Assembly: GCA_944325685.1 (NCBI GenBank)
Contig: CALVBC010000005.1
Span: forward strand, 1 to 64,000
DNA: 64,000 nucleotides
From: an uncultured Erysipelotrichaceae bacterium
Lineage (GTDB): Bacteria > Bacillota_I > Bacilli_A > Erysipelotrichales > Erysipelotrichaceae
Direction of reading: 5' to 3'
Part shown: in pieces, positions 1-12,256 of the stretch
Layout of the letters: every line of letters starts with the position of its first letter
How positions within the stretch are numbered: the first letter of the stretch is position 1
Made by a program: the position numbers and the translations under genes
The notes under the pieces: model-generated
The model's input: only the letters and a program-made list of their open reading frames with translations
Told to the model about the DNA's origin: nothing
Database searches by the model: none

Positions 1-284
1 CCGCAATCCTTACAGAAAAGCAAGCCCGACAAAGGGTGGATTTCCCCGTCCCCGTTGGGGCGTTTGACGGGCGCATTTTCCAAAATCCGCTGTACGGTTT
101 CAAAGTCGGTGCGGTCAATAATCGGCTCATGCACATTTTCGGTTATCTGCCATTGGCTGCGGTCTACATAGTGGTTCCGTTTGTCGCGGAAGTGCTTTGT
201 GGTCTTGAAGTTGACAACATCACCGCAATACTCCTGCCGCGTGAGGATATAATCACGGGTTTTCTCAATGCGGAATACCGCCAT
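1..284 (-). CDS. Serine recombinase, C-terminal fragment with an apparently swapped N-terminus; runs off the left edge
   Basis: The minus-strand frame opens with an ATG at 284 behind a good GGAGG Shine-Dalgarno and reads off the window. From about residue 14 it matches the middle of large serine recombinases of Clostridia-type integrative elements: LTRQEYCGDVVNFKT, then ENVHEPIIDRTDFETVQRIL, then PLSGLLFCKDCG, the start of the zinc ribbon. The catalytic N-terminal resolvase domain is absent. The first dozen residues (MAVFRIEKTRDY) are instead, from memory, the usual start of the HTH/DUF6017-type replication-initiator protein of the same elements. The ORF is therefore probably a chimera made by deletion or by an assembly join. 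Codon use (GGC, CGC, ACC, ATT) differs from the rest of the window. It cannot be a working recombinase as seen. Confidence 0.7.
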   Translation of the reverse strand, partial: MAVFRIEKTRDYILTRQEYCGDVVNFKTTKHFRDKRNHYVDRSQWQITENVHEPIIDRTDFETVQRILENAPVKRPNGDGEIHPLSGLLFCKDC

Positions 285-466
285 ATTGGATACCTCCTTC
301 CTTCGGTTTTGAAAAGTGTTCGTTTCGGCGGATTTTCGCCCCTGTATCACCACCCCGCCTCCCATGAGGGAAAGAATATGGGCGGTTTCACTTTCGCCGC
401 CCACAGGCGAAAAAACAGGGGATTTTCCACCCGTATTCATACAGTTTTGGGTGCCCCCGGCAGGGC

Positions 467-503
467 ATAAAAAACGCCACAGGTTTGTGTTACCTATGGC
501 GTT
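467..503 (-). terminator. Rho-independent terminator-like hairpin in the foreign segment
   Basis: On the minus strand AACGCCATAGGT and ACCTGTGGCGTT form a 12-bp stem with a short loop, followed by six T. It lies upstream of the minus-strand fragment at 1-284 and belongs to the integrative-element DNA. Confidence 0.6.
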
Positions 504-516
504 TGGGACAGGAAAA

Positions 517-543
517 GGGTGCTGACATTTCATATCAGCACCC
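517..543 (-). repeat. Perfect 9-bp inverted repeat
   Basis: GGGTGCTGA and TCAGCACCC are separated by 9 nt. On the minus strand the stem is followed by TTTTCC, so it may be the terminator of a gene that lay further upstream in the integrative element. Together with the hairpin at 467-503 it fills the gene-free stretch 285-570, where I see no other gene. Confidence 0.5.
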
Positions 544-570
544 TTTGTCCTGCCAGTATTAAATTTTTGA

Positions 571-735
571 CTTCACATCGTGTTCCTTGCCTCTGAAAAC
601 ATTGATTTTACTGGACTTGCTCATGTTTTCTTATTAGGAGGCGGGGAAGAATATGCGGCCTTTTTAGACCGCACATCCGAAAGCTATGATTCCTTGGAGT
701 CAACGATCACGGAGAATGCGTCAAGCTTTATTTGA
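571..735 (+). CDS. C-terminal tail of an unrecognised protein, truncated at the foreign junction
   Basis: A plus-strand frame is open from just after a TGA at 568-570 to a TGA at 733-735. The encoded tail includes FTGLAHVFLLGGGEEYAAFL and ends STITENASSFI. No start with a ribosome site is visible, so it looks like the end of a longer gene whose front was lost at the junction with the foreign DNA. It overlaps the next gene start by 20 bp, which would suit the upstream member of the type-VII-like operon, but its codons (ATT, GGC, GGG) are unlike that operon. I do not recognise a family. It may be foreign or native. Confidence 0.3.
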   Translation, partial: LHIVFLASENIDFTGLAHVFLLGGGEEYAAFLDRTSESYDSLESTITENASSFI

Positions 736-2716
736 TAAGCTCAAAAGGGCCTTTTTGGTATCGCTTATCATTTTGAGTGTCTTTGGTTGTGCAAAAGAAG
801 ATCCCTATACCAGGATGATGTGGTTAGAAGATCTAGCCACATCATCAGGCATCTATCAAGATGATGTGGTAGGGGACATGTATGCCTTTGGAGCGATCAA
901 AGACATCGATGACCTTGAAAGGGAACTTGATATCGACTATGTTGCCTATACTGCCAGTAATCTAAGTGAAAAAGAGTTCGAAGGAGTAAAGGTATTAGAT
1001 CTTGATCAAAGTGATCATCCGGATGAACTGATCGAAGCGGTGAGCTTAAAGATCATCGAGCTCGATGATCAAAAAGCACATCCTAAAGCCAAGGTCAGTA
1101 AAGAAGAGGCTTTGGTCTATATCGAAAAGATCTTAGATATCATCGACAATAAGACCTTTGAAGATAAAGCTTTGATCGAATATAAAGAAGATACCACCTA
1201 TCAAGAGAAACTTCCCGAGCCGATCAACGGCTATTATCCGATCACACAAGATCTTGATATCGGTGCGTATATCGTCGATCAAGAAGATGAGATGATCTAT
1301 GAGGTCATCGAAGAAAGCGAAGAAGGCTATGGTCTAAAGGAGGTCCCTTTTGAAGAGGCGATCGAAAAGATCGATATCCAAGGGACGATCGAAGATCTAG
1401 ATCTGGCTGAAGCTGAGATCATCATCGATGGTGAACTCGAAGAAACACCAAGCATCTATCATCAAGAAGGCATCACCAGGATGGCGAAGTTTTCGCCATC
1501 AGGTGAATTTAAAAAAGACGGCTATAAGATCACCTATTCCATCTCGCTCAATAAGCTCCATCTGCATGTATCGAAAAAGACGGAACGGGGGATCAATGTC
1601 TACTTTGATGGTGATATCTATGGGATAACCCCGTCATATAAATGGGACTATGAGGATGGTAAGATCAAAGATGCCTATCTAAAGGTCGACTTTAAGACTG
1701 GTGAAGAATTTGGCCTTTCCGTTGGTCGCTATAAGACCCTATATGGTGATATCGCTTCTTTGGATAAAGTTGACCTCTTCAATAGTCTAAAGAACTTCAT
1801 GAAGCCTGAAGAGGATCTACTATCGACATCCTTTACCCTTATGAAGATCAAAGTACCGATCAGCGGTGTACCGATCGCGACCTTTGATATCGAAGTCAAG
1901 CTCAACTTCTACATCAGTGGCAAGGTCGAAGTTGCCCTAGCGACAGATAATGCCTTAGGCCTTGAGATCAAGAATAACCACTTGCGCATGATCTTCGACC
2001 ATGATGAAGACCTCGACTTCAATGTGAACGCCTCGGCTAATAGTACCCTTTCCGTCATCTTCTCCTTGCATCTGATAAAAGACCTTGTCGATCTCAGGTT
2101 CAATGGGGGCATTAAAAGTCTAGTGGGGACGACGGTCCATATGTATGACAGTGACGGAAGGTTAATGACCTCTTCAAGCACTGGTGAATATGACGCCTTA
2201 AGCGAAGTGAGTGATCAAAAGGAAGTCTTTGTGTGTGGTGATATATCTCTTTCCTGGATCTTGAATATCGAGCTCAATTCCGATAAGACCCTCGCTTATC
2301 TCTTGGGCTTCCATAAGAAGATCACCATCTTAGATGAAGATGACCAGATCTTTTTAGATAAGCCCCATATCGAAAATGGCCTCTTTGTCGAAAAGTGCAG
2401 CTATAAAGATAGAAAAGTCACATCAAATAAAGATCCGATCATCGTAAATGAAGACCGGATCAGCCTTGATAGCTATGCGATGGTCATAAGGAATAAGGAA
2501 CAGATCAAGATCAAGTCTTTACCAAGTGGTTACACGAATAAAGATATCATCTTTGCGATCGAAGATGCTTCTATAGCTTCTGTTGATCAAAGTGGTAATA
2601 TCACGCCATTAAAAAGTGGGACGACAAAGGTCCGGATCTATACAAGCGATGAGAAGTATGAGGTCTATATCAATATCTTGGTGAGTATCGATGAAACGCT
2701 TAGTATCACTATATGA
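716..2716 (+). CDS. Large predicted lipoprotein with a C-terminal Ig-like (BIG2) domain, type-VII-secretion-like locus
   Basis: The predicted start is the ATG at 716 rather than 686, because it gives a classic lipoprotein signal: KLKR, a hydrophobic stretch, and a VFGC lipobox with Cys25. The 666-aa protein would be lipid-anchored on the outer face of the membrane. Residues about 30-250 are very acidic and helix-prone. The middle is beta-rich with a motif TFDIEVKLNFYISGKVEVAL. The last 75 residues look like a bacterial Ig-like domain (SVDQSGNITPLKSGTTKVRI). It overlaps the EssC-like gene by 26 bp, so the two are probably translationally coupled. I do not recognise a characterised homologue. 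Position suggests an envelope part of the secretion machine, perhaps filling an EssA/EssB-like role; that is inference only. Confidence 0.65.
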   Translation: MRQALFDKLKRAFLVSLIILSVFGCAKEDPYTRMMWLEDLATSSGIYQDDVVGDMYAFGAIKDIDDLERELDIDYVAYTASNLSEKEFEGVKVLDLDQSDHPDELIEAVSLKIIELDDQKAHPKAKVSKEEALVYIEKILDIIDNKTFEDKALIEYKEDTTYQEKLPEPINGYYPITQDLDIGAYIVDQEDEMIYEVIEESEEGYGLKEVPFEEAIEKIDIQGTIEDLDLAEAEIIIDGELEETPSIYHQEGITRMAKFSPSGEFKKDGYKITYSISLNKLHLHVSKKTERGINVYFDGDIYGITPSYKWDYEDGKIKDAYLKVDFKTGEEFGLSVGRYKTLYGDIASLDKVDLFNSLKNFMKPEEDLLSTSFTLMKIKVPISGVPIATFDIEVKLNFYISGKVEVALATDNALGLEIKNNHLRMIFDHDEDLDFNVNASANSTLSVIFSLHLIKDLVDLRFNGGIKSLVGTTVHMYDSDGRLMTSSSTGEYDALSEVSDQKEVFVCGDISLSWILNIELNSDKTLAYLLGFHKKITILDEDDQIFLDKPHIENGLFVEKCSYKDRKVTSNKDPIIVNEDRISLDSYAMVIRNKEQIKIKSLPSGYTNKDIIFAIEDASIASVDQSGNITPLKSGTTKVRIYTSDEKYEVYINILVSIDETLSITI

Positions 2717-5700
2717 AGGATATCAAAGTGACAAGATCCTGTTAGAAAAGGATATCACTTGGCATGGCATCAGCTTTTATCTAAAAGATGATAGATGGTA
2801 TTGCCTATTAGATGATGACCTTACATTAGCTGATGGAAGAAGGGCTTTTGCGTTAGATGATGGTCGATATGAGATGGTGAGAAAAGATCGTTTTTTCACC
2901 ATCTACCTCTTTGTCCAAAGACCATCATCTTTCAAAGCCTTTCAAAGATGTAACTTCTTATTGAGTGACATCATACAAGCGGATATCGTCTATGATGTCA
3001 TAAATAACTATCATATCTTTTTAAAAGGTGACCACCTTTATAGCGATATCGATCTTATCTATCTAAATGGCAAAAGATATCAAGGTCAAAGCTTAAAAGA
3101 CCACGATGTGATCGACTTTTTAGGGATCAGGATAATCGTGACAGAAAGGGTCGTACTTATAAGTGATAGCTACACATCGATCAAACTCAGCCCTTTTAAG
3201 GAGATTTATGCTCCATATAAGGAAACATATAAGCTTGTCGCTAAAAAGTATCATCCGAAATATGAACTTCCTAAACTAAGATATAAGGTCAAATTAAAGC
3301 CATTAGCGCAAAACACGGAAGCACCTTTTTTGGTCAGTTTTGGTCAAGGATTATTCATGAGTTTAGGGATGTTGGTGGTGGCGGTAATCAATGGCTATAT
3401 CAGCTATCAAAATGATCGGGCTATGATCGAGATCGTTTTGATGGTCATGATGCCATTACTCATGGCGATCGGGGCGATCCTATTCCCTTTTATCCAAAGG
3501 CGATATCGACAAAGTAGCGCGCATAAGAGGTCTATAGATCAAACTAAAGCCAATCAGAAAGCGCTCGATGATCTAAAAAGCCAGATCGAAGCTGATATCA
3601 TGACGATAAGAGAGTATCATGACCATTATCGTTTCGATAGTGACAAGTATCTAAGTCTATTAAAGGATGATGATATCTATCAAAGGGATAAAAATGATGA
3701 TGACATGTTGTATATAGCTTTAGGCATTGGGAAGATAAAGCTTGATCTAAAGATCGATACAGAACGCGATGAAGATCGAAGCTACCTTAAGGATATCTAC
3801 AAGGCTTATAAGATGATCGATGGGACTTTTATCTTAGATCTTAAAAAGATCCGCTATATCACCTTTTTAGTGGCTAAGAAAAAACGCGAGGACTTATTCT
3901 TGTATGTGTTATTACAAATTGTCCTTTTGACTTCACCCCGTGATCTTAAGATCGTGATATCAGTAGATGATGACTTTATAAAAAGACATCCAGAACTAAA
4001 AGATATCAAGCATCTTTGGACAAATGATCATCGTCTATTATTTGATCATGAAGCAAAAGACATCGATATCGATCAAAGGGTCGTCATATTGAGCTTTTAT
4101 AAAGGCGAAGAGGTGATAAAAGAAAATATCAGCTATCTATACTTCAGTGATGATCCCATCATCCCTAAAAGATCTGATCTTATCATCCGATATCAAGGCG
4201 ATGATATCTATGTCAAAGATGGCGAAAAGGAAGATCACTATCACGACTTGGTCTTTAGATATGATCCGCATATCTTCTATCGTTTACGCTTGTATCACGA
4301 ATTAGATGAAGAAGACCAAAAAAGCGTCATCACCTTAGATGATATCTATCCTTTAGATCTCGATCTCGATAAGTCCTATAGTACTAAAAGAAAGGGTATC
4401 GAAGTTACTTTAGGGCTTGATCAAAATGGTCATCGATTGAGCTACGATATATCACAAACTGGGATCGGTCCGCATTGCCTGATCGGTGGGGCAACCGGTA
4501 GCGGTAAGAGCGAGCTTGTCCTCGCTATGATCATGTCGCTAGTCTTAAACTATAGCGCATCAGATCTGAGCTTAGCGCTGATCGATTTTAAGGGGACGGG
4601 ATTAAAAGAGGCTCTATCATATCGTGGCGAATTATTGCCCCATATCGATCTTGCCTTATCTAATCTTGATGAAGTCGCTTTAGATCGCTCATTAGCTTAT
4701 TTCAAGCTTGAATGCAAAAGGCGTGAAGAAGCCTTTCAAAAGCTCGCTAGTATCACTCATACCAGTATTATGGATCTTAAAGACTACGACCGCGCTGATC
4801 CTTTGCGTTATGGTCTTAGTAAGATCCCATATCTTTTCATCGTGATCGATGAATTTGCGGAACTAAAAGCCAGCCGACAGAACTTCATGCAGGATATCAT
4901 CTCGATCGCTCGTATCGGCCGAAGTCTTGGCATCATGATGATCCTAATCACCCAAAAGCCAGCCGCTGTCGTCGATAAGGAAGTCTGGGCTAATACCGCT
5001 TATCGGATCGCCCTTAAGGTCAATGATGTCGCTGATTCTAAGGAGTTGCTTAATAATGACTTAGCTTTTAAGATCAAAAGACCAGGGGAGTTTTATCTAT
5101 TGGCGGATAAATTGAGCCATGGAAGATGTGCTTATACGCGCTCTTTGGTCGATGAAAGGAACCATGAAGAAGTCACGATCATCGATCTTAAAGGAAAGAC
5201 TTTAAAGACGAAGGAATTCATAGTTCAAAACGAAGAAAGACAACTTTCCTATTTCATCAAGAAGATCATCGACCATCATAAAGAAAGGCACATCAAGCTA
5301 TCTTCGATCTATAAGAAAGCCCTTAAAGAAGAGAGCTTTATGACGCTTTATAAGCGCTATGATGTAAAGCTCGATCTTGATAAGGTCTTGCTTGGTGAAG
5401 ATGATGACTTCAATAAGATGACCCAAAATGCCCTGATCCATGATCTAAAGATCGATCCCTTTGTGATCTTCAGTTATAAGACCAAGGAAGTAAAAGAAGC
5501 TTTCTATAAGCTCTTTTGTACATCTTTGGCTTTAAAGGCTGATCATTATCACTTTGTCATGATCAGCGACAAGAAGGTCGATCTTGGTGTCTATGATGGT
5601 CTTATCGAAAAGGTCCATTATGAAGATGGTGATGATATCGCTTATATCTTCGCCAAGATCAAAAAAGGGATCAAGAAAAAGGCGATCATCTTCATCGATG

Positions 5701-6353
5701 ACTATATGCGCTTTAGCCAAAACGAGGACCGAAAGATGATCTTAGAAAAGGAGATCTTTCAAGTTGACAGTAAGGATATCGCGATCATCATCGCCACTAA
5801 CACCAAGATCAGCCTATCTTTCCGCCTAGATCAGATCTTTAAGAAGTATGTCTTAGAATATGAGAATAAAGAAGAGCTCATCTATGCCTTCAATAAAGCG
5901 CAAGCCGTCAGTGAGCCAAATGTCTATATGCGCCATGATGATCTTATCGGCTTTAAGCTATGCAAAGTACCAAATATCGATCAAAGACTCAAAAGGTCAA
6001 GTGATCTTATCGATCATCTACCGAAAAAGATCACCTCTGAAGATGGCCTTATCGGTTATGACATCAAAAGGCGCACTAAGGTCTATGCGCCAAAAGGCAA
6101 GATCTTATTTGTCGCTTATTATAAGGAACTACTAGATCGATTTAAAAAGGTCTATAAAGGTTATGGTGATCATTCATATCACGTTTTACAAGATGTCCCT
6201 AAGGATATCTATCATGATGCCATCTGTTGGATCGGGCCTAATATCGTGAGCCAATATCTCTTCATCCCTAAGATCAAAAGAGATCTCAAAGCTGATGAAG
6301 CTTATATCGAGATCGGAAATGAGGTGCATATCATCCGTTATGTCGATGCATAG
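2691..6353 (+). CDS. essC: EssC/YukB-like FtsK/SpoIIIE ATPase of a type VII secretion system
   Basis: This 1220-aa protein has the EssC order. Two N-terminal FHA-like beta domains (about 1-180) precede two membrane segments (about 216-240 and 247-270) and a degenerate ATPase-like region (GIGKIKLDLKI onward). One canonical FtsK/SpoIIIE ATPase follows, with Walker A GGATGSGKSE (GG at 599, Lys606), Walker B LFIVIDEFAEL (Asp720) and an ITQKP sensor. The last 400 residues look like a further ATPase fold without a P-loop (IIFIDDYMRF). EssC of Staphylococcus is near 1480 aa, so this one is short. EssC drives export of WXG100/LXG substrates. The gene overlaps both neighbours and sits directly before a YukD-like gene. 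No WXG100 substrate lies in the window. Symbol given by analogy. Confidence 0.8.
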   Translation: MKRLVSLYEGYQSDKILLEKDITWHGISFYLKDDRWYCLLDDDLTLADGRRAFALDDGRYEMVRKDRFFTIYLFVQRPSSFKAFQRCNFLLSDIIQADIVYDVINNYHIFLKGDHLYSDIDLIYLNGKRYQGQSLKDHDVIDFLGIRIIVTERVVLISDSYTSIKLSPFKEIYAPYKETYKLVAKKYHPKYELPKLRYKVKLKPLAQNTEAPFLVSFGQGLFMSLGMLVVAVINGYISYQNDRAMIEIVLMVMMPLLMAIGAILFPFIQRRYRQSSAHKRSIDQTKANQKALDDLKSQIEADIMTIREYHDHYRFDSDKYLSLLKDDDIYQRDKNDDDMLYIALGIGKIKLDLKIDTERDEDRSYLKDIYKAYKMIDGTFILDLKKIRYITFLVAKKKREDLFLYVLLQIVLLTSPRDLKIVISVDDDFIKRHPELKDIKHLWTNDHRLLFDHEAKDIDIDQRVVILSFYKGEEVIKENISYLYFSDDPIIPKRSDLIIRYQGDDIYVKDGEKEDHYHDLVFRYDPHIFYRLRLYHELDEEDQKSVITLDDIYPLDLDLDKSYSTKRKGIEVTLGLDQNGHRLSYDISQTGIGPHCLIGGATGSGKSELVLAMIMSLVLNYSASDLSLALIDFKGTGLKEALSYRGELLPHIDLALSNLDEVALDRSLAYFKLECKRREEAFQKLASITHTSIMDLKDYDRADPLRYGLSKIPYLFIVIDEFAELKASRQNFMQDIISIARIGRSLGIMMILITQKPAAVVDKEVWANTAYRIALKVNDVADSKELLNNDLAFKIKRPGEFYLLADKLSHGRCAYTRSLVDERNHEEVTIIDLKGKTLKTKEFIVQNEERQLSYFIKKIIDHHKERHIKLSSIYKKALKEESFMTLYKRYDVKLDLDKVLLGEDDDFNKMTQNALIHDLKIDPFVIFSYKTKEVKEAFYKLFCTSLALKADHYHFVMISDKKVDLGVYDGLIEKVHYEDGDDIAYIFAKIKKGIKKKAIIFIDDYMRFSQNEDRKMILEKEIFQVDSKDIAIIIATNTKISLSFRLDQIFKKYVLEYENKEELIYAFNKAQAVSEPNVYMRHDDLIGFKLCKVPNIDQRLKRSSDLIDHLPKKITSEDGLIGYDIKRRTKVYAPKGKILFVAYYKELLDRFKKVYKGYGDHSYHVLQDVPKDIYHDAICWIGPNIVSQYLFIPKIKRDLKADEAYIEIGNEVHIIRYVDA

Positions 6354-6612
6354 AGTACGTGTCCACTTGCGCTTTGTGAGTGATCATCCGATCGAAGCCT
6401 ATTTCAGTGAAAAGCTGACCTTAAAAGAGAATATCGATCTTCTGTATAGTCTTTTAGGAAAAGATGTTAAAGACTACTTAGTCATGCCTTATGACACCCC
6501 GATCATCTTAGACCCCCTAAAGAAACTTTCAGCGTATCATCTTCAAGACGCGACGATCCTATACATCTATGATTTCACAAAAGAGGGAAGTTGTATTAAA
6601 ATAACCCCATGA
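6346..6612 (+). CDS. YukD/EsaB-like ubiquitin-fold protein
   Basis: An 88-aa acidic/hydrophobic protein with a beta-grasp pattern: strand VRVHLRFVS, a helix at LKENIDLLYSLL, and a final strand ATILYIYDF. It starts inside the end of the EssC-like gene (ATG at 6346, or 6340 in the same frame) and its stop overlaps the next ATG. YukD/EsaB proteins of about 80 aa have a ubiquitin fold, are encoded beside EssC in Firmicute type VII systems and are thought to regulate secretion in the cytoplasm. The call rests on size, position and predicted fold rather than on a strong motif. Confidence 0.6.
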   Translation: MHRVRVHLRFVSDHPIEAYFSEKLTLKENIDLLYSLLGKDVKDYLVMPYDTPIILDPLKKLSAYHLQDATILYIYDFTKEGSCIKITP

Positions 6613-9359
6613 AAAAAATAGGGATCCTATTACTATGTGCGATACTTGTATGTACGAGTGTCATATATGCTGAGGAGCTACCGTATAAGATCTATGAGCT
6701 GAGTGATGGTAACTATCATCTCATCGAAGAAAGCGCTGATCTAAATAGTTCACTTCGCCGCTTTGATGAGCTAAGGGATAGTTATCATGATCTCGTCTTG
6801 ATGCAAGATGAGACGGTCTTGATGATGGAATATGGGATCGTTGAATTCAAGGTCAATGATGCCTGTTCATTAGATCTTAACTATACATCAGAAGATGGTG
6901 ACACCAAGACCATCAACGGTTGTTATGCGATCGATGCTGCATATCTAGATACTTCTAGTGATCTAACCTCAGTCACCTTTATGATCAGTGGTGATGTCGG
7001 TACGATCGCCTTTGATGATGTCATCTTACATCCATATGCGAGCTTAAAAGTAGCCAATACCCGATATCGTGTAAGTGGTGGATCACTGTATCATGACATC
7101 AAAGCCCAACTTGTCGAAGACTATGTCTTTAATAGTATCGAACTTGGACCTGCACCGAATTATCTGAGCTATGAAGAGGTATATGATAGTTATGATGGTC
7201 ATTATTTCTATCGCTCATTCTACGATATGATCGATGATTATAGGGAAGATAGCCACCAAAGGGCGGTCAATAGTACTTCGCCATATTATAACTACTACAT
7301 GTATCTGCCTCATCGTAGCACCACCAACTATAGTTATCAAGATCTTAATACCTATTTCAGTGATACCCTTGTCTTCAATGGGCGTTTAGATACCTATTAT
7401 GATTTCAACTACGATAACGCCAATGACGATGTCAACAGATCACAATATGTCGACAATATCGATGCCTTCTTTGAATATCAATATCGCTATGGAGCTAATG
7501 CAATGATGATGATCAGTCTTAGTATCTATGAGTCATCATATGGCAAGTCATATAATGCCTTTGTCCAGAATAACCTCTTTGGTCATGCGGCTTTTGATAC
7601 AGCTTCAGAAAGGGCTAATAGTCGCTATGACACCGTAGCTAGAAGTATCTATTCACATGCCAAATACTATATATCTGACCGCTATGTTGATCCGACAAGC
7701 GGTGTATATAACGGTTCTTTCTTCGGTGATCTGGCTTCGGGAATGGGTGTCAGTTATTCAAAGGATCCTTATTGGGGTGAAAACCTCGCTAGTGACTACT
7801 ATACCTTTGATAGGGCCTTAGGTCTTAAAGATCTCAATAACTATAGTTTAGGGATCATCGAAGATGAAGAAGAGATCGTCGTTTATAGCGATGAAGCTAA
7901 AACGAATATCAAGGCGACGATCAAAGATATCGATCCTTATAGCTTCATCATCCTAAAGGAAAGCGATGATAGTTATAAGGTCCAATTTGATGGCACGTCA
8001 AATGAAGATCTGACATATGACTTTGCGAGTGATGTCGGCTATATCGATAAAAATATCGTCGATCTTTTATTAAACCCAGAGGCGATCAAAGAAGATAGCT
8101 ATCATACGGTCACCTTTAAGATCGATGATACGACATCGACAAGTATCAAGGTCGCCGATGGCGATATGCCGATCATCGATGCCCCGACGAAAGAGGGCTA
8201 TCTCTTTCAAGGATTTGCGCAAGATATCGTCCCGGTGACAGAAGATACGATCTATGATCTCATATATGACAAGGTCCGCTCGATCGCTTTAGTATCATCG
8301 CCGAAGACGACGATGACTTTAAATGGGGTCATGTCCTTAGAAGGTGGCATCTTAAGGGTCACCTATGAAGATCAAGAAGGCAATGAGGATAGTTTCGATG
8401 TCGAATTAAATAGTGATATGGTCACTAATTATGACTTAACTAAAGAGGGCACACAGAATATCATCGTCTCCTATTGTGGGATGGTCACAAGTTATGAGAT
8501 CTTTGTCGACAAAGAGCTATATGATAGTAAGGTCTACCTCGATGAAAAGATCCCCGAGATCATCGACCGTCTTAAAAAAGGTGAAGAAGTCGATAGTGAA
8601 GAGATCTTAGAAGTCAAAAAGGCGATCTTAGATACAGGTTATGTCTTAGACAATGATGCGATCGTCTTATTTGATCAGATCTTATTAGATCGTTATAAAG
8701 AAGATGTCAATTTCCATATCAGTGGATTAAGGCTACTTTCGATATCAGGGATGGCTTTGTCTTTAGATATCGAAGATAGTTATAATAGTGGCCTTAGTTT
8801 GATACCGGATACTTATTATCTATATTCCGGGATCAGTGGTTATGATGATGAAGTCTATCTCGAAAAGATCAGCAGTGCCTATGGCTTTGAGATCGTCACC
8901 TCTTTTTCGATCTACTTCAAGAAAAACAACGAACTGATCACCAATGATGGACCATTCATCATCGAACTTCACGATGATGAGCTCGATACGCATAAGGTCT
9001 ATACGGTATATAATGTCGACGATGATGGTGATGTGATCAAGTGTCGGACGACCCAAAGCGCTGATGGCATCCAATTCACGACGATGGGTGATGGTAATTT
9101 CATGGTCCTAGCCTTAGAATCAGCCAATGATTATACCTTAGAAGGACCGACGATCTTCAATATCACGCCAGACAATGATGGACCAGATACGGTGACGATG
9201 ATCTACATCGGTGGTTTTTATGCCTCGATCGGTCTTGTGGATGTGATATTATACGTATGTTTGATGTACAAGGAGAAAAAGACGAAGGAATTATGGAGCG
9301 ACTACAAAAAGTATTGGCGAGCGCCGGTATCGCCTCAAGAAGAAAAGCCGAAGAACTGA
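6609..9359 (+). CDS. Secreted, membrane-anchored glucosaminidase (GH73-like) in the type VII-like operon
   Basis: The 916-aa product has a Sec signal peptide (cut near YAEE). An N-terminal beta region leads to a glucosaminidase core around residues 270-410 with MMMISLSIYESSYGKS; Glu308 is the likely acid and NNLFGHAAFD follows, as in Firmicute endo-beta-N-acetylglucosaminidases. Then come an SH3-like stretch (about 415-500), an InlB-type beta-grasp repeat (EGYLFQGF, near 530), a helical and beta tail, and one membrane segment at about 870-896 with a basic cytosolic end (YKEKKTKELW). It would cut peptidoglycan while held at the membrane. The 4-bp overlap with the YukD-like gene ties it to the operon, so it may open the wall for the secretion channel (inference). 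Its 3' end overlaps rluB by 67 bp. Confidence 0.75.
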   Translation: MKKIGILLLCAILVCTSVIYAEELPYKIYELSDGNYHLIEESADLNSSLRRFDELRDSYHDLVLMQDETVLMMEYGIVEFKVNDACSLDLNYTSEDGDTKTINGCYAIDAAYLDTSSDLTSVTFMISGDVGTIAFDDVILHPYASLKVANTRYRVSGGSLYHDIKAQLVEDYVFNSIELGPAPNYLSYEEVYDSYDGHYFYRSFYDMIDDYREDSHQRAVNSTSPYYNYYMYLPHRSTTNYSYQDLNTYFSDTLVFNGRLDTYYDFNYDNANDDVNRSQYVDNIDAFFEYQYRYGANAMMMISLSIYESSYGKSYNAFVQNNLFGHAAFDTASERANSRYDTVARSIYSHAKYYISDRYVDPTSGVYNGSFFGDLASGMGVSYSKDPYWGENLASDYYTFDRALGLKDLNNYSLGIIEDEEEIVVYSDEAKTNIKATIKDIDPYSFIILKESDDSYKVQFDGTSNEDLTYDFASDVGYIDKNIVDLLLNPEAIKEDSYHTVTFKIDDTTSTSIKVADGDMPIIDAPTKEGYLFQGFAQDIVPVTEDTIYDLIYDKVRSIALVSSPKTTMTLNGVMSLEGGILRVTYEDQEGNEDSFDVELNSDMVTNYDLTKEGTQNIIVSYCGMVTSYEIFVDKELYDSKVYLDEKIPEIIDRLKKGEEVDSEEILEVKKAILDTGYVLDNDAIVLFDQILLDRYKEDVNFHISGLRLLSISGMALSLDIEDSYNSGLSLIPDTYYLYSGISGYDDEVYLEKISSAYGFEIVTSFSIYFKKNNELITNDGPFIIELHDDELDTHKVYTVYNVDDDGDVIKCRTTQSADGIQFTTMGDGNFMVLALESANDYTLEGPTIFNITPDNDGPDTVTMIYIGGFYASIGLVDVILYVCLMYKEKKTKELWSDYKKYWRAPVSPQEEKPKN

Positions 9360-10021
9360 TCTTAGAGGGTAGGGTCAAGGTTGATGGTGAAGTCATCACG
9401 ACTTTGGGCTTTAAGGTAAGCGGCAGTGAAAAGATCGAAGTCGACAATAAGCCGATCCAAAAGGAAGAAAAGGTCGTCTATCTTTTGAATAAACCGAAAA
9501 ATGTCATCTCATCGGTCAAAGATGACAAAGGGCGGACCTGTGTCAGCGATATCGTCCAAAGCGAATATCGCCTATTCCCGATCGGTCGTCTTGACTATGA
9601 AAGCAGTGGTCTATTGCTTATGACCAACGATGGTGATCTCGCTAATAAGATCTTACATCCGCGCTTTTTGATCCCTAAGACCTATGAGGTCACAGCGCAA
9701 GGTGATATCACGATCAAAGAGATCGCTAAACTGAAAAAAGGTGTCGTTTTAGATGATGGTCATAAGACCGGCAAAGCCGATATCCAATATATCGACTCCA
9801 ACCCAAATAAAAATACCCATCGCTATATCGTGACGATATACGAAGGGCATAATCGTGAGATCAGAAAGATGTTTGAGACGATCGGTGCCAAGGTCATAAG
9901 GCTCAATCGGATCAAGGAAGCCAATATCGAACTTGGCGATCTAAGACCGGGTGAATACCGTCGCCTTAAGATCCATGAAGTCAAGATGTTAAGGCAATAT
10001 CTAGATCGCGACGATATCTGA
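9293..10021 (+). CDS. rluB: 23S rRNA pseudouridine synthase RluB family
   Basis: An S4 RNA-binding domain (MERLQKVLASAGIASRRKAE) fills residues 1-60, followed by the RsuA/RluB catalytic domain with GRLDYESSGLLLMTND; Asp101 is the nucleophile. GHNREIRKMF is the family C-terminal motif. The family isomerises a uridine in helix 89 region of 23S rRNA. The start at 9293 is preferred because the S4 domain begins there; an upstream ATG at 9257 would add 12 unrelated residues. The 5' end lies inside the preceding gene, and the 3' end overlaps convergent rqcH by 21 bp. 242 aa is normal for RluB. Confidence 0.93.
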   Translation: MERLQKVLASAGIASRRKAEELILEGRVKVDGEVITTLGFKVSGSEKIEVDNKPIQKEEKVVYLLNKPKNVISSVKDDKGRTCVSDIVQSEYRLFPIGRLDYESSGLLLMTNDGDLANKILHPRFLIPKTYEVTAQGDITIKEIAKLKKGVVLDDGHKTGKADIQYIDSNPNKNTHRYIVTIYEGHNREIRKMFETIGAKVIRLNRIKEANIELGDLRPGEYRRLKIHEVKMLRQYLDRDDI

Positions 10022-11632
10022 TGTCACTCTTTCCGGATCGATAAAGATGGTCTTGAAGTTACGGATCGAAACTTTACCAGCTTTCGATCCTTTTATTTTC
10101 TTGATATCCTTATTGAGACAATAGTCGACTGGTACCGATGATGAATAGCGACCTTTAGAATAGTAAGCAGCGACATTAGCGCAGAACCTGATCGTATCTT
10201 CATCAGGAGTGCTCGTATCGACGCAGACATGGGCGCCATGATAGCTTTGGGCATGGAACCACATGTAGTCACCATGGGCGTATTTGAAGGTCAAAGTATC
10301 GTTTTGGATGTTGTTTTTGCCGAAGGTGATCAAATGGTCTTTGAATTTGATCTGATATAAGTGATACTTGTCCTTCTTCTTTTTCGGCATCTTTTTATTG
10401 CCGGCTTTTAGATAACCGTATTTGATCAGCTCTTCTTTGATCATCTGAGCATCTAAGAAGTTGGCGATCTGAAGTTGCTCTAAAAGAGAAGAGAAGTAAT
10501 CATATTCATTTTGCGCGATGTCGATCTGTTCTAATAGGTATTTAGTACTGCGCTTTTTCTTTTGGTAGTTATTGTAATACTTATTCGCATTCTCTTTGAT
10601 CGATAGCTTAGGATCAAGCTTGATAGTGATGTCATCATCTTCGTAATCTTTAGTAACTATCTTTTCAAGACCTTTTTTATCAAGATCGCCATACATGTAT
10701 AAAAGGTCACCCATATCCTTTAACTCTTGGGCGTTTTTAGCGCTCTCTAAGGTCTCGTTTAGTTTATTGATCTTCTCTTGATAGTGCTTGATCTGCCTTT
10801 GGGTGAATTTGAATAGGTCACCAGTGATCTCTTTGATCCGGGCTTTCTCTTCAAGGTCATAGTAGATGAGATCAAAGCCATCATCGGGCTCATAGGCGTT
10901 AGATGCTTGACCTAAGTGCTTTAAAGGAATGATATGAAACTGCATCGTCTCATCAAGTTCAGTGATATAAAGCTTATCGCTTTTAGCTAGCTCATCGATG
11001 ATATCTTGATACTTTTCACCGTTTTCCAAGCGATAGAAGACTTCTTTTTGTAAGAGTGGTGAAAAGCCCATGAGTTGTGATACCAAGGACTTATCAAAGT
11101 CGACTTCTTGATAAATAAAAGGATCGTGTTTATCCTGCTTTTCCGGCCAGATGAAATCAGCGCCTGGCCAGATCGTGCGCTTGTTGTTTTCAAAGGGTGG
11201 GATACGCTTTAAAGCGTCGATGATCTTGTTATTCTCATCGACTAGGATGATATTAGCGTACTTGCCCATCAGTTCGATATGTAATCGATAGTGTTTAGTA
11301 TCATAGAGGTCATCAAGATTACGGATGTAGAAGACAAGATATCGGTCGTAGTTGATCTGTTTGATCTCTTCGATGATGCCATTATTGATATGTTTCCTAA
11401 GACCCATCACAAAGGCGTTTGGTTCACCGCTTGTGTCGTATCTCATCTTGGTGAAGTGGATGCGATTGTATAAGCTATGGGTCGAGATGATGAGATCTTT
11501 CCGTATCCTATCAGCGTGGACGTTTAAAACGATATCGTCATTGGATATCTGGGTGATGCGGTTTATCCGCATCGGTAAGGACTTTACAAGTCGTTCTTTT
11601 TCTTTATTTAAGATAATACCATCAATTGCCAT
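10001..11632 (-). CDS. rqcH: RqcH/NFACT-family ribosome quality-control protein
   Basis: The 543-aa product has the NFACT-N domain (MAIDGIILNKEKERL; IELMGKYANIILVD), the helical coiled-coil middle (about 270-400) and the C-terminal NFACT-R domain (DYMWFHAQSYHGAHVCV; YYSKGRYSSSVPVDYC). RqcH binds obstructed 50S subunits with peptidyl-tRNA and directs C-terminal Ala tailing of the stalled chain; older annotations call it fibronectin-binding protein FbpA. No Shine-Dalgarno precedes the ATG. Instead an extended -10 lies 6 nt upstream, so the mRNA is probably leaderless. It overlaps rluB at the 3' end and diverges from gmk with only 45 bp between. Confidence 0.93.
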   Translation of the reverse strand: MAIDGIILNKEKERLVKSLPMRINRITQISNDDIVLNVHADRIRKDLIISTHSLYNRIHFTKMRYDTSGEPNAFVMGLRKHINNGIIEEIKQINYDRYLVFYIRNLDDLYDTKHYRLHIELMGKYANIILVDENNKIIDALKRIPPFENNKRTIWPGADFIWPEKQDKHDPFIYQEVDFDKSLVSQLMGFSPLLQKEVFYRLENGEKYQDIIDELAKSDKLYITELDETMQFHIIPLKHLGQASNAYEPDDGFDLIYYDLEEKARIKEITGDLFKFTQRQIKHYQEKINKLNETLESAKNAQELKDMGDLLYMYGDLDKKGLEKIVTKDYEDDDITIKLDPKLSIKENANKYYNNYQKKKRSTKYLLEQIDIAQNEYDYFSSLLEQLQIANFLDAQMIKEELIKYGYLKAGNKKMPKKKKDKYHLYQIKFKDHLITFGKNNIQNDTLTFKYAHGDYMWFHAQSYHGAHVCVDTSTPDEDTIRFCANVAAYYSKGRYSSSVPVDYCLNKDIKKIKGSKAGKVSIRNFKTIFIDPERVTSDIVAI

Positions 11633-11638
11633 GAAAAA

Positions 11639-11647
11639 ATTATACCA
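11639..11647 (-). promoter_or_regulatory. Extended -10 promoter of rqcH, giving a leaderless mRNA
   Basis: On the minus strand TGGTATAAT ends 6 nt before the rqcH ATG. The TG at the extended -10 position and a consensus TATAAT are seen directly. Transcription would start at or next to the A of the start codon. No AGGAGG-like site is present. Confidence 0.65.
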
Positions 11648-11677
11648 TTTTCAGAAAATATATAGTATTATATTTAC

Positions 11678-12256
11678 ATGAAGAAGGGATTATTGATCGT
11701 CTTTTCCGGTCCTAGTGGCGTTGGGAAAGGTACAGTACTAAAGAAATTGGTAGCGGATAAGGAATTAAAACTCGCTTATTCGGTATCGATGACGACAAGA
11801 GCTCCGCGCAAAGGAGAGGTCGATGGTGTCAACTATTTCTTTGTGAGCGAAGAGCGTTTTAAAGAGGCCATCTACAACGGTGAACTCTTAGAACACGCGT
11901 GTTTTGTCGACCATTACTATGGTACACCAAAGGCATATGTCGAAAAGATGCGCGATGAAGGATACAATGTCGTCCTTGAGATCGAGACCGTCGGTGCTAA
12001 GCAGATCATGAATGCCTACAAATATGATAAGGGTTGTATCTCGATCTTCCTTACACCACCTGATATGAAGGAACTTGAAGCTAGGATCCGCAAAAGATCA
12101 AGCGAAACAGAAGATGTGATCGAAAAGCGTGTCCTAAAAGCGACCCAAGAATTAAGAGAGACTTATCGCTATGATCATGTCATCTGCAATGACAACGTCG
12201 ATGAAGCTGTCAGCAAGATCAAAAAGATCATCCTCGATAAGATCGTTGAACAATAA
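11678..12256 (+). CDS. gmk: Guanylate kinase
   Basis: The 192-aa enzyme phosphorylates GMP to GDP with ATP. The P-loop GPSGVGKGT is at residues 11-19, the GMP-binding segment SVSMTTRAPRKGEVDGVNY follows, and the lid and C-terminal helix are intact. The start is fixed by the canonical MKKGLLIVFSGPSG beginning. No Shine-Dalgarno is visible; TATTAT lies 6 nt upstream of the ATG at 11666-11671, so this may be another leaderless gene, although the -35 is poor and TGN is missing. It stands alone, divergent from rqcH, and is closed by a terminator. Confidence 0.95.
   Translation: MKKGLLIVFSGPSGVGKGTVLKKLVADKELKLAYSVSMTTRAPRKGEVDGVNYFFVSEERFKEAIYNGELLEHACFVDHYYGTPKAYVEKMRDEGYNVVLEIETVGAKQIMNAYKYDKGCISIFLTPPDMKELEARIRKRSSETEDVIEKRVLKATQELRETYRYDHVICNDNVDEAVSKIKKIILDKIVEQ

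What the first reader, a model, noticed from the sequence alone, without database searches (positions are those of the whole stretch)
716..9359. Type-VII-like secretion operon of unusual composition
Lipoprotein (BIG2), EssC-like ATPase, YukD-like protein and a wall hydrolase are chained by overlaps of 26, 8 and 4 bp. No EsaA, EssA, EssB or WXG100 is recognisable. A lipid-anchored BIG2 protein in place of membrane EssA/EssB would be a distinct machine layout.
Basis: partly seen in the sequence, partly recalled or inferred. Interest (0 to 1): 0.65.

Follow-up and report, generated by a model that had tools for sequence, protein, structure and literature searches.

The report
Five-gene lipoprotein type VII secretion system
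A family of gut bacteria (Erysipelotrichaceae) carries a stripped-down protein-export machine that lacks the usual membrane partners and always carries a lipid-anchored surface protein beside its motor; the copy in this window has its first two genes cut off by mobile DNA at a contig end.

Summary
The four genes and their 26, 8 and 4 bp overlaps are real. The missing WXG100 is not a property of the system. The window begins at a contig end in mobile-element DNA, and window 646-735 still encodes the last 29 codons of a WXG100 gene, overlapping the lipoprotein start. In 42 of 44 related loci (Erysipelotrichaceae) two WXG100 genes precede the lipoprotein. The conserved core is WXG100-1, WXG100-2, lipoprotein, EssC, YukD-like; a glucosaminidase follows in 13 of 32 testable loci; no other neighbour is conserved. 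EssB and EsaA are absent genome-wide from the lipoprotein-type genomes searched, while controls are detected. The lipoprotein is predicted as lipid anchor, SLH-like domain, long beta-sheet region, BIG2. EssC keeps a degenerate FHA, two TM helices and an EccC-like ATPase stack with Walker A only in D1. WXG100-1 carries W-x-G and WXG100-2 YxxxE in 42 of 42 loci, as in a heterodimeric substrate. None of T7SSa-j (Garrett 2024) has this composition. Best reading: an undescribed T7SS subtype whose only core transmembrane protein is EssC. The lipoprotein's role is inferred; no experiment tests secretion. In this genome the operon may have lost its WXG100 genes.

The parts
1..640 (.). Mobile-element DNA at the contig end, unrelated to the operon
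   Evidence: Window = G000:C5:1-64000. Homology to the nearest relative L032 begins only at 646. The minus-strand ORF 533-3 matches Pfam Recombinase, E 1.5e-10.
646..735 (+). 3' remnant of WXG100-2 (EEYAAFLDRTSESYDSLESTITENASSFI, stop), with the YxxxE export motif (YDSLE)
   Evidence: 90% identity over 29 aa to L032 WXG100-2. Against L032, 72/90 bases identical, changes at codon positions 1/2/3 = 3/2/13. The intact relative exceeds the NF035934 cut-off.
716..2716 (+). Lipoprotein, 666 aa: signal peptide plus Cys25, SLH-like domain, long beta-sheet region, BIG2 domain
   Evidence: Alignment of 32 (C25 at least 90% conserved); Big_2; AF2 mean pLDDT 80.9; SLH match Z 14.2
797..1150 (+). SLH-like domain, lipoprotein residues 28-145
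   Evidence: VIA-align: 6bt4 Z 14.2, rmsd 2.0 over 118; 3pyw Z 13.7. Weak sequence support: Pfam SLH E 0.019 in one member, Sap E 0.08.
2441..2695 (+). BIG2 domain, lipoprotein residues 576-660
   Evidence: Pfam Big_2 E 2.9e-5; 7r3t Z 10.5
2691..6353 (+). EssC-type ATPase, 1220 aa, the only core transmembrane protein
   Evidence: TIGR03928 E 1.7e-73, below its equivalog cut-off; best PDB profile hit is B. subtilis YukB 9qks E 1.8e-132; AF2 aligns with EccC 4nh0 Z 35.3 over 630 residues
2928..3185 (+). Degenerate FHA domain of EssC (about residues 80-165)
   Evidence: hhalign probability 96%, E 2e-9, to FHA domains of TseJ-like proteins of the same order
4488..4511 (+). Walker A of ATPase domain D1 (GATGSGKS); Walker B (DE) at 4848-4853
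   Evidence: Invariant in 30 EssC sequences; no Walker A seen in the aligned D2/D3 regions
6346..6612 (+). YukD/EsaB-like small protein, 88 aa
   Evidence: hhalign probability 93%, E 3.2e-7, to YukD-position proteins of other T7SS loci of the order; found by HMM in 37 of 39 loci that reach it, and by eye in the other two
6609..9359 (+). Wall hydrolase, 916 aa: signal peptide, glucosaminidase domain, Big_3, C-terminal TM; optional partner
   Evidence: Glucosaminidase E 6.7e-10 and Big_3 E 1.2e-4; PDB endo-beta-N-acetylglucosaminidases E 2.8e-15, aligned catalytic-type Glu308, conserved in the family

Best explanation
The locus is the 3' part of a distinct T7SS subtype of Erysipelotrichaceae with a five-gene core: WXG100-1 (W-x-G), WXG100-2 (YxxxE), lipoprotein, EssC and a YukD-like protein, often followed by a glucosaminidase. 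Shown computationally: gene order, conservation, absence of EssB and EsaA, and domain content. Inferred: WXG100-1 and WXG100-2 pair in the cytoplasm as a heterodimer. The YxxxE tail of WXG100-2 engages the EssC ATPase stack. EssC, assisted by the YukD-like protein and powered by D1 (the only domain with a Walker A), moves the pair through a membrane pore built from its own two TM helices. The lipoprotein sits on the outer membrane leaflet above that pore, binds wall glycan or a neighbour through its SLH-like domain, and carries its beta-sheet and BIG2 parts into the wall, doing the envelope-spanning work that EsaA does in T7SSb. The linked glucosaminidase opens peptidoglycan for the complex, as EssH does in S. 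aureus. Without detectable LXG toxins in the genomes searched, the WXG100 pair itself (WXG100-2 falls in NCBI's 'pore-forming ESAT-6' family) is the most likely main substrate. In this genome the WXG100 pair is absent from the assembly, so this copy may be inactive.
For: Lipoprotein and EssC adjacent in 44/44 loci; both WXG100 genes in 42/44, the exceptions being L131 (contig starts inside the lipoprotein) and L122 (truncated lipoprotein, no WXG100). YukD-like in 37/39 by HMM. W-x-G in WXG100-1 42/42, YxxxE in WXG100-2 42/42 and never in WXG100-1. No further conserved neighbour. Lipoprotein profile hits at E<=1e-40 in about 126 genomes, all of one family (counted by hand from the table). No EssB, no EsaA. 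Exactly two WXG100 hits in each of 11 lipoprotein-type genomes; none in G000 or G005. EssC of this type lies on one side of a branch, SH-aLRT 98. EssC fold, FHA, SLH-like and BIG2 domains. Analogous dedicated hydrolase EssH required for T7SSb secretion (PMC13059805, abstract).
Against: No experiment tests secretion or a lipoprotein-EssC contact, and the complex could not be modelled here. CsaB was below cut-off in all 26 genomes searched, so classical SLH binding to pyruvylated wall polymer is doubtful. The middle region of the lipoprotein has no identified fold. The hydrolase is linked in only 13 of 32 loci that reach far enough. YukD identity is profile-level only: Pfam YukD E 0.0092 in one member of 22. 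Only about half of the 32 lipoproteins meet a strict lipobox pattern, although the Cys is conserved. EssA was not searched genome-wide.
Confidence: 0.75

Rival explanations
1. An ordinary T7SSb whose EssA/EssB/EsaA genes lie elsewhere in the genome; the lipoprotein is an accessory.
For: EssC matches TIGR03928 and best of all B. subtilis YukB; T7SSb occurs in the same order (G013, G053).
Against: EssB and EsaA profiles find nothing in the lipoprotein-type genomes while finding them in B. subtilis and in G013/G053. EssC of this type separates from the T7SSb EssC in the tree. The system has a WXG100 pair with divided motifs.
Confidence: 0.06
2. The five-gene T7SS is real, but the lipoprotein is not part of the secretion channel: it is a surface adhesin or an envelope-stress sensor co-transcribed with it.
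For: Its SLH-like plus BIG2 architecture resembles surface proteins; no physical contact with EssC has been shown.
Against: It lies between the WXG100 pair and essC in 42 of 44 loci, usually overlapping them, while other neighbours vary. It is the only conserved extracytoplasmic protein of the core.
Confidence: 0.25
3. Not exclusive of the main explanation: in this genome the operon is a broken relic, mobile DNA having removed the promoter, WXG100-1 and most of WXG100-2.
For: Contig C22 ends in an IS3-like transposase end at the nitroreductase stop, and contig C5 begins in recombinase DNA; in the nearest relative only the two WXG100 genes lie between these points. No WXG100 elsewhere in the assembly.
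Against: The remnant is not decayed (changes 3/2/13 by codon position) and the four following genes are open. An assembly gap across a repeat would look the same.
Confidence: 0.45

Closest known systems
T7SSb (Ess/Yuk system of S. aureus and B. subtilis)
   Same: EssC with N-terminal FHA and two TM helices; YukD-like protein; WXG100; a dedicated wall hydrolase (EssH) is known in S. aureus
   Different: No EssB or EsaA; WXG100 pair instead of a single EsxA; SLH/BIG2 lipoprotein; Walker A only in D1; no LXG toxin above cut-off
T7SSg (Garrett et al. 2024, PMC11217815)
   Same: Small set: two WXG100, a YukD-like protein, EssC and one further protein
   Different: TsgC lacks FHA and TsgL is a DUF5050 beta-propeller beside Tad pilus genes; here FHA is present, the extra protein is an SLH/BIG2 lipoprotein, and no Tad genes are among the conserved neighbours
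T7SSd, T7SSe and T7SSj (TsxI systems)
   Same: A large extracytoplasmic Ig-domain protein (TsxI); T7SSe also has a WXG100 pair
   Different: No kinase, phosphatase or TsxJ among conserved neighbours of the lipoprotein loci. T7SSe-like loci exist separately in the same family (L046-L049) with a distinct EssC clade
EssH (S. aureus T7SSb hydrolase, PMC13059805)
   Same: A wall hydrolase encoded with and serving a T7SS
   Different: CHAP amidase versus glucosaminidase with a C-terminal TM; linked here in fewer than half of the loci

Membership tests
Type VII secretion system (general) | FtsK/EssC-type membrane ATPase | tested here: met
Type VII secretion system (general) | WXG100 protein encoded in the locus | tested here: met
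   Met in 42 of 44 related loci; in the window's genome only a 29-codon remnant
Type VII secretion system (general) | YukD/EsaB-like protein | tested here: met
   Profile-profile hit 93%, found in 37/39 loci; single-sequence Pfam support is weak
Type VII secretion system (general) | EssC-dependent export of WXG100 | not testable with these tools
   Needs an experiment
T7SSb | EssB/YukC pseudokinase | tested here: not met
   PF10140 genome-wide: none in G000 or the lipoprotein-type genomes; positive in B. subtilis, G013, G053
T7SSb | EsaA/YueB | tested here: not met
   TIGR03929: none in lipoprotein-type genomes; B. subtilis control and, below cut-off, G013/G053 positive
T7SSb | EssA | tested here: inconclusive
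   No conserved neighbour resembles it, but no genome-wide search was run
T7SSb | FHA domain at the N-terminus of EssC | tested here: met
   One degenerate FHA by hhalign; the first N-terminal module gave no FHA match
T7SSg | EssC without FHA | tested here: not met
   FHA detected
T7SSg | TsgL DUF5050 beta-propeller | tested here: not met
   Pfam finds no DUF5050 in 12 lipoproteins; predicted fold is SLH-like, beta-sheet, BIG2
T7SSe | Kinase TseD, phosphatase TseF and TseJ in the locus | tested here: not met
   No such conserved neighbour in 44 loci; kinase and DUF6382-FHA protein confirmed in the separate locus L046
SLH domain proteins | SLH fold | tested here: met
   AF2 model Z 14.2, rmsd 2.0 over 118 residues to Sap SLH
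SLH domain proteins | Pyruvylated wall polymer made by CsaB | tested here: not met
   TIGR03609 below cut-off in all 26 genomes, none in G000; a diverged enzyme is possible

The most novel reading that the evidence does not exclude
An undescribed T7SS subtype in which EssC is the only core transmembrane protein, with the usual membrane scaffold (EssB/EsaA, EccB/D/E or a kinase) replaced from outside by a lipid-anchored SLH/BIG2 protein: in effect a minimal T7SS with an external rather than an integral-membrane partner.
Probability: 0.55. Interest if true: 0.75.

Novelty: new variant of a known kind. Interest (0 to 1): 0.62.

Why it matters
Which parts of a T7SS form the membrane pore, and how cargo crosses the Gram-positive wall, are open questions. 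A five-gene system with one core transmembrane protein and one extracytoplasmic lipoprotein would be among the smallest T7SS known and could make both questions testable. It is widespread in gut and rumen Erysipelotrichaceae, including cultured Holdemania filiformis and Anaerorhabdus furcosa, and is not among the subtypes T7SSa-T7SSj catalogued in 2024.

Tried and rejected
A T7SSb with scattered genes: rejected for EssB and EsaA. LXG toxins as cargo: none above cut-off in 20 genomes, so no polymorphic toxin was identified. The long ORFs near the loci looked like possible toxins but were housekeeping where read (PolC-like, YgiQ-like radical SAM, PepF-like; by inspection). A first FHA domain at EssC residues 21-88: hhalign gave no match. 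PDB search with the EssC N-terminus alone: nothing. Known fold for the middle of the lipoprotein (about 150-560): none found, but it was not folded alone, so it is only barely tested. Plasmid match for the mobile DNA at 1-700: none. YukD profile against PDB: only weak hits, including a ubiquitin-like protein at E 0.33. Papers on T7SS in Erysipelotrichaceae or with S-layer homology: nothing relevant. Complex prediction of lipoprotein with EssC was not available.

Full report
Observation. The four genes are present as described: lipoprotein 716-2716, EssC 2691-6353, YukD-like 6346-6612, hydrolase 6609-9359, with overlaps of 26, 8 and 4 bp. Pfam and NCBIfam identify Big_2, FtsK_SpoIIIE/EssC (TIGR03928 E 1.7e-73, below its equivalog cut-off), Glucosaminidase and Big_3; the small protein has no single-sequence hit.

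The window is bases 1-64000 of a contig of a 1.36 Mb assembly, so the operon's start is cut off. Window 646-735, in a frame different from the lipoprotein's, encodes the last 29 codons of a WXG100 protein, 90% identical to that of the nearest relative, and overlaps the lipoprotein start. Against the intact gene 72 of 90 bases agree, with 3, 2 and 13 differences at codon positions 1, 2 and 3, so the remnant is not decayed. Before it lies mobile DNA with a recombinase fragment. The other side of the break is the end of contig C22: polC, a nitroreductase and then, at the nitroreductase stop, what reads as the end of an IS3-type transposase (the IS assignment is by inspection). In the nearest relative only the two WXG100 genes lie between these two points. 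No WXG100 is found elsewhere in this assembly. Whether the pair is deleted or merely unassembled cannot be told.

Relatives. The EssC search over 60 genomes and the fetched neighbourhoods show, in the 11 lipoprotein-type loci whose contig reaches upstream, two genes of about 98-100 aa directly before the lipoprotein; the members tested match WXG100 and NF035934. A lipoprotein profile finds matches at E<=1e-40 in about 126 of 316 genomes of the order, all in the window's own family and about 15 genera (counted by hand; the search lists many weaker single-domain matches too). A scan of one genome per GTDB species gave 44 loci, labelled Erysipelotrichaceae, Solobacterium, Holdemania, Anaerorhabdus, Candidatus Colivicinus, one 'Eubacterium sp.' MAG or unnamed Bacillota. 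In these, lipoprotein and EssC are present in 44, both WXG100 genes in 42, the YukD-like gene in 37 of the 39 that reach it by HMM and by eye in the other two (L110, L132), and the hydrolase in 13 of 32 that reach far enough. L131 begins inside the lipoprotein; L122 has a truncated lipoprotein and no WXG100. Clustering all neighbours within 6 kb finds no gene outside the core in more than 14 loci; apart from the hydrolase (14) these are housekeeping genes such as nusA/infB, nitroreductase and fbpA. There is thus no sign of an additional linked membrane component.

What is absent. EssB (PF10140) is found in B. subtilis, G013 and G053 but in none of the other 18 genomes searched. The EsaA N-terminal model behaves the same way in 16 genomes. 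LXG is above cut-off in none of 20 genomes. Eleven lipoprotein-type genomes have exactly two WXG100 hits, both in the locus; G000 and the fragmented G005 have none. EssA was not searched genome-wide.

The proteins. WXG100-1 has W-x-G in 42 of 42 loci and never YxxxD/E near its C-terminus; WXG100-2 has YxxxE in 42 of 42. By analogy with EsxA/EsxB this suggests a heterodimer with one export signal (inference). EssC: the best PDB profile match is B. subtilis YukB 9qks, E 1.8e-132. The AF2 model (pLDDT 85) aligns with EccC 4nh0 at Z 35.3 over 630 residues and with the membrane-DUF part of EccC3 and YukB. One degenerate FHA domain is supported by hhalign at 96%. Walker A is seen only in D1. Lipoprotein: the AF2 model (pLDDT 81) has an SLH-like domain at residues 28-145 (Z 14.2, rmsd 2.0 over 118 to Sap 6bt4) and a BIG2 domain at 576-660, with long antiparallel strands between them that match nothing confidently. 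Sequence support for SLH is weak, and CsaB is below cut-off in all 26 genomes tested, so its ligand is unknown. Cys25 is conserved in at least 90% of 32 homologues, though a strict lipobox pattern is met by about half. YukD-like: hhalign 93% to the YukD-position proteins of other T7SS loci of the order. Hydrolase: related to solved endo-beta-N-acetylglucosaminidases (E 2.8e-15), with the aligned Glu308 conserved in the family.

Phylogeny. In a quick maximum-likelihood tree the 26 lipoprotein-type EssC proteins lie on one side of a branch (SH-aLRT 98) from T7SSb and kinase-type T7SSe-like EssC of the same order. Long branches and uneven composition limit this, and with the FtsK outgroup the lipoprotein-type set need not be a clade.

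Comparison. Garrett et al. 2024 (PMC11217815) define T7SSc-T7SSj. None has a lipoprotein with SLH/BIG2, and the main text of that paper mentions neither Erysipelotrichaceae nor lipoproteins. T7SSg is nearest in size (two WXG100, YukD-like, EssC, one more protein) but lacks FHA and has a beta-propeller next to Tad genes. T7SSd/e/j have a large Ig-domain protein TsxI, but with a kinase. The dedicated hydrolase has a functional parallel in EssH, needed in S. aureus for EsaA to cross the wall (PMC13059805 abstract).

Verdict. An undescribed T7SS subtype of Erysipelotrichaceae with EssC as the only core transmembrane protein and a lipid-anchored SLH/BIG2 protein as the conserved external partner. 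That it is a T7SS variant of distinct composition is well supported. That the lipoprotein forms the external part of the channel is inference. This particular genome's copy lacks its WXG100 genes in the assembly.

Noticed in passing
G000:C22 end (L143 625-749) and window 1-640: Two contig ends bracketing the missing WXG100 genes carry different mobile DNA: an IS3-like transposase end at the nitroreductase stop, and a recombinase fragment.
   Followed up: partly
window 9293-9359: The 3' end of the hydrolase gene overlaps the start of a pseudouridine synthase (rluB-like) by 67 bp if its start is taken at 9293; the same 67 bp overlap is seen in L032, L034, L035, L036 and L037.
   Followed up: no
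L046, L047, L048, L049: T7SSe-like loci (in L046 a Ser/Thr kinase and a DUF6382-FHA protein confirmed by Pfam; EssC, YukD-like and small WXG100-like genes in all four) occur in the same bacterial family, separate from the lipoprotein type.
   Followed up: partly
L042 (G022:C16) 6813-12107: A further T7SS arrangement in the same family: DUF6382-FHA protein, EssC with an FHA signature, YukD-like, no lipoprotein.
   Followed up: no
L122 8000-10032: A locus with an N-terminally truncated lipoprotein and no WXG100 genes between it and a nitroreductase, possibly another damaged copy or an assembly error.
   Followed up: no
L129:7969-8259 and other WXG100-2 genes: WXG100-2 of this system exceeds the cut-off of NCBI's 'pore-forming ESAT-6 family' model NF035934; no paper for that name was found in the held library.
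   Followed up: partly
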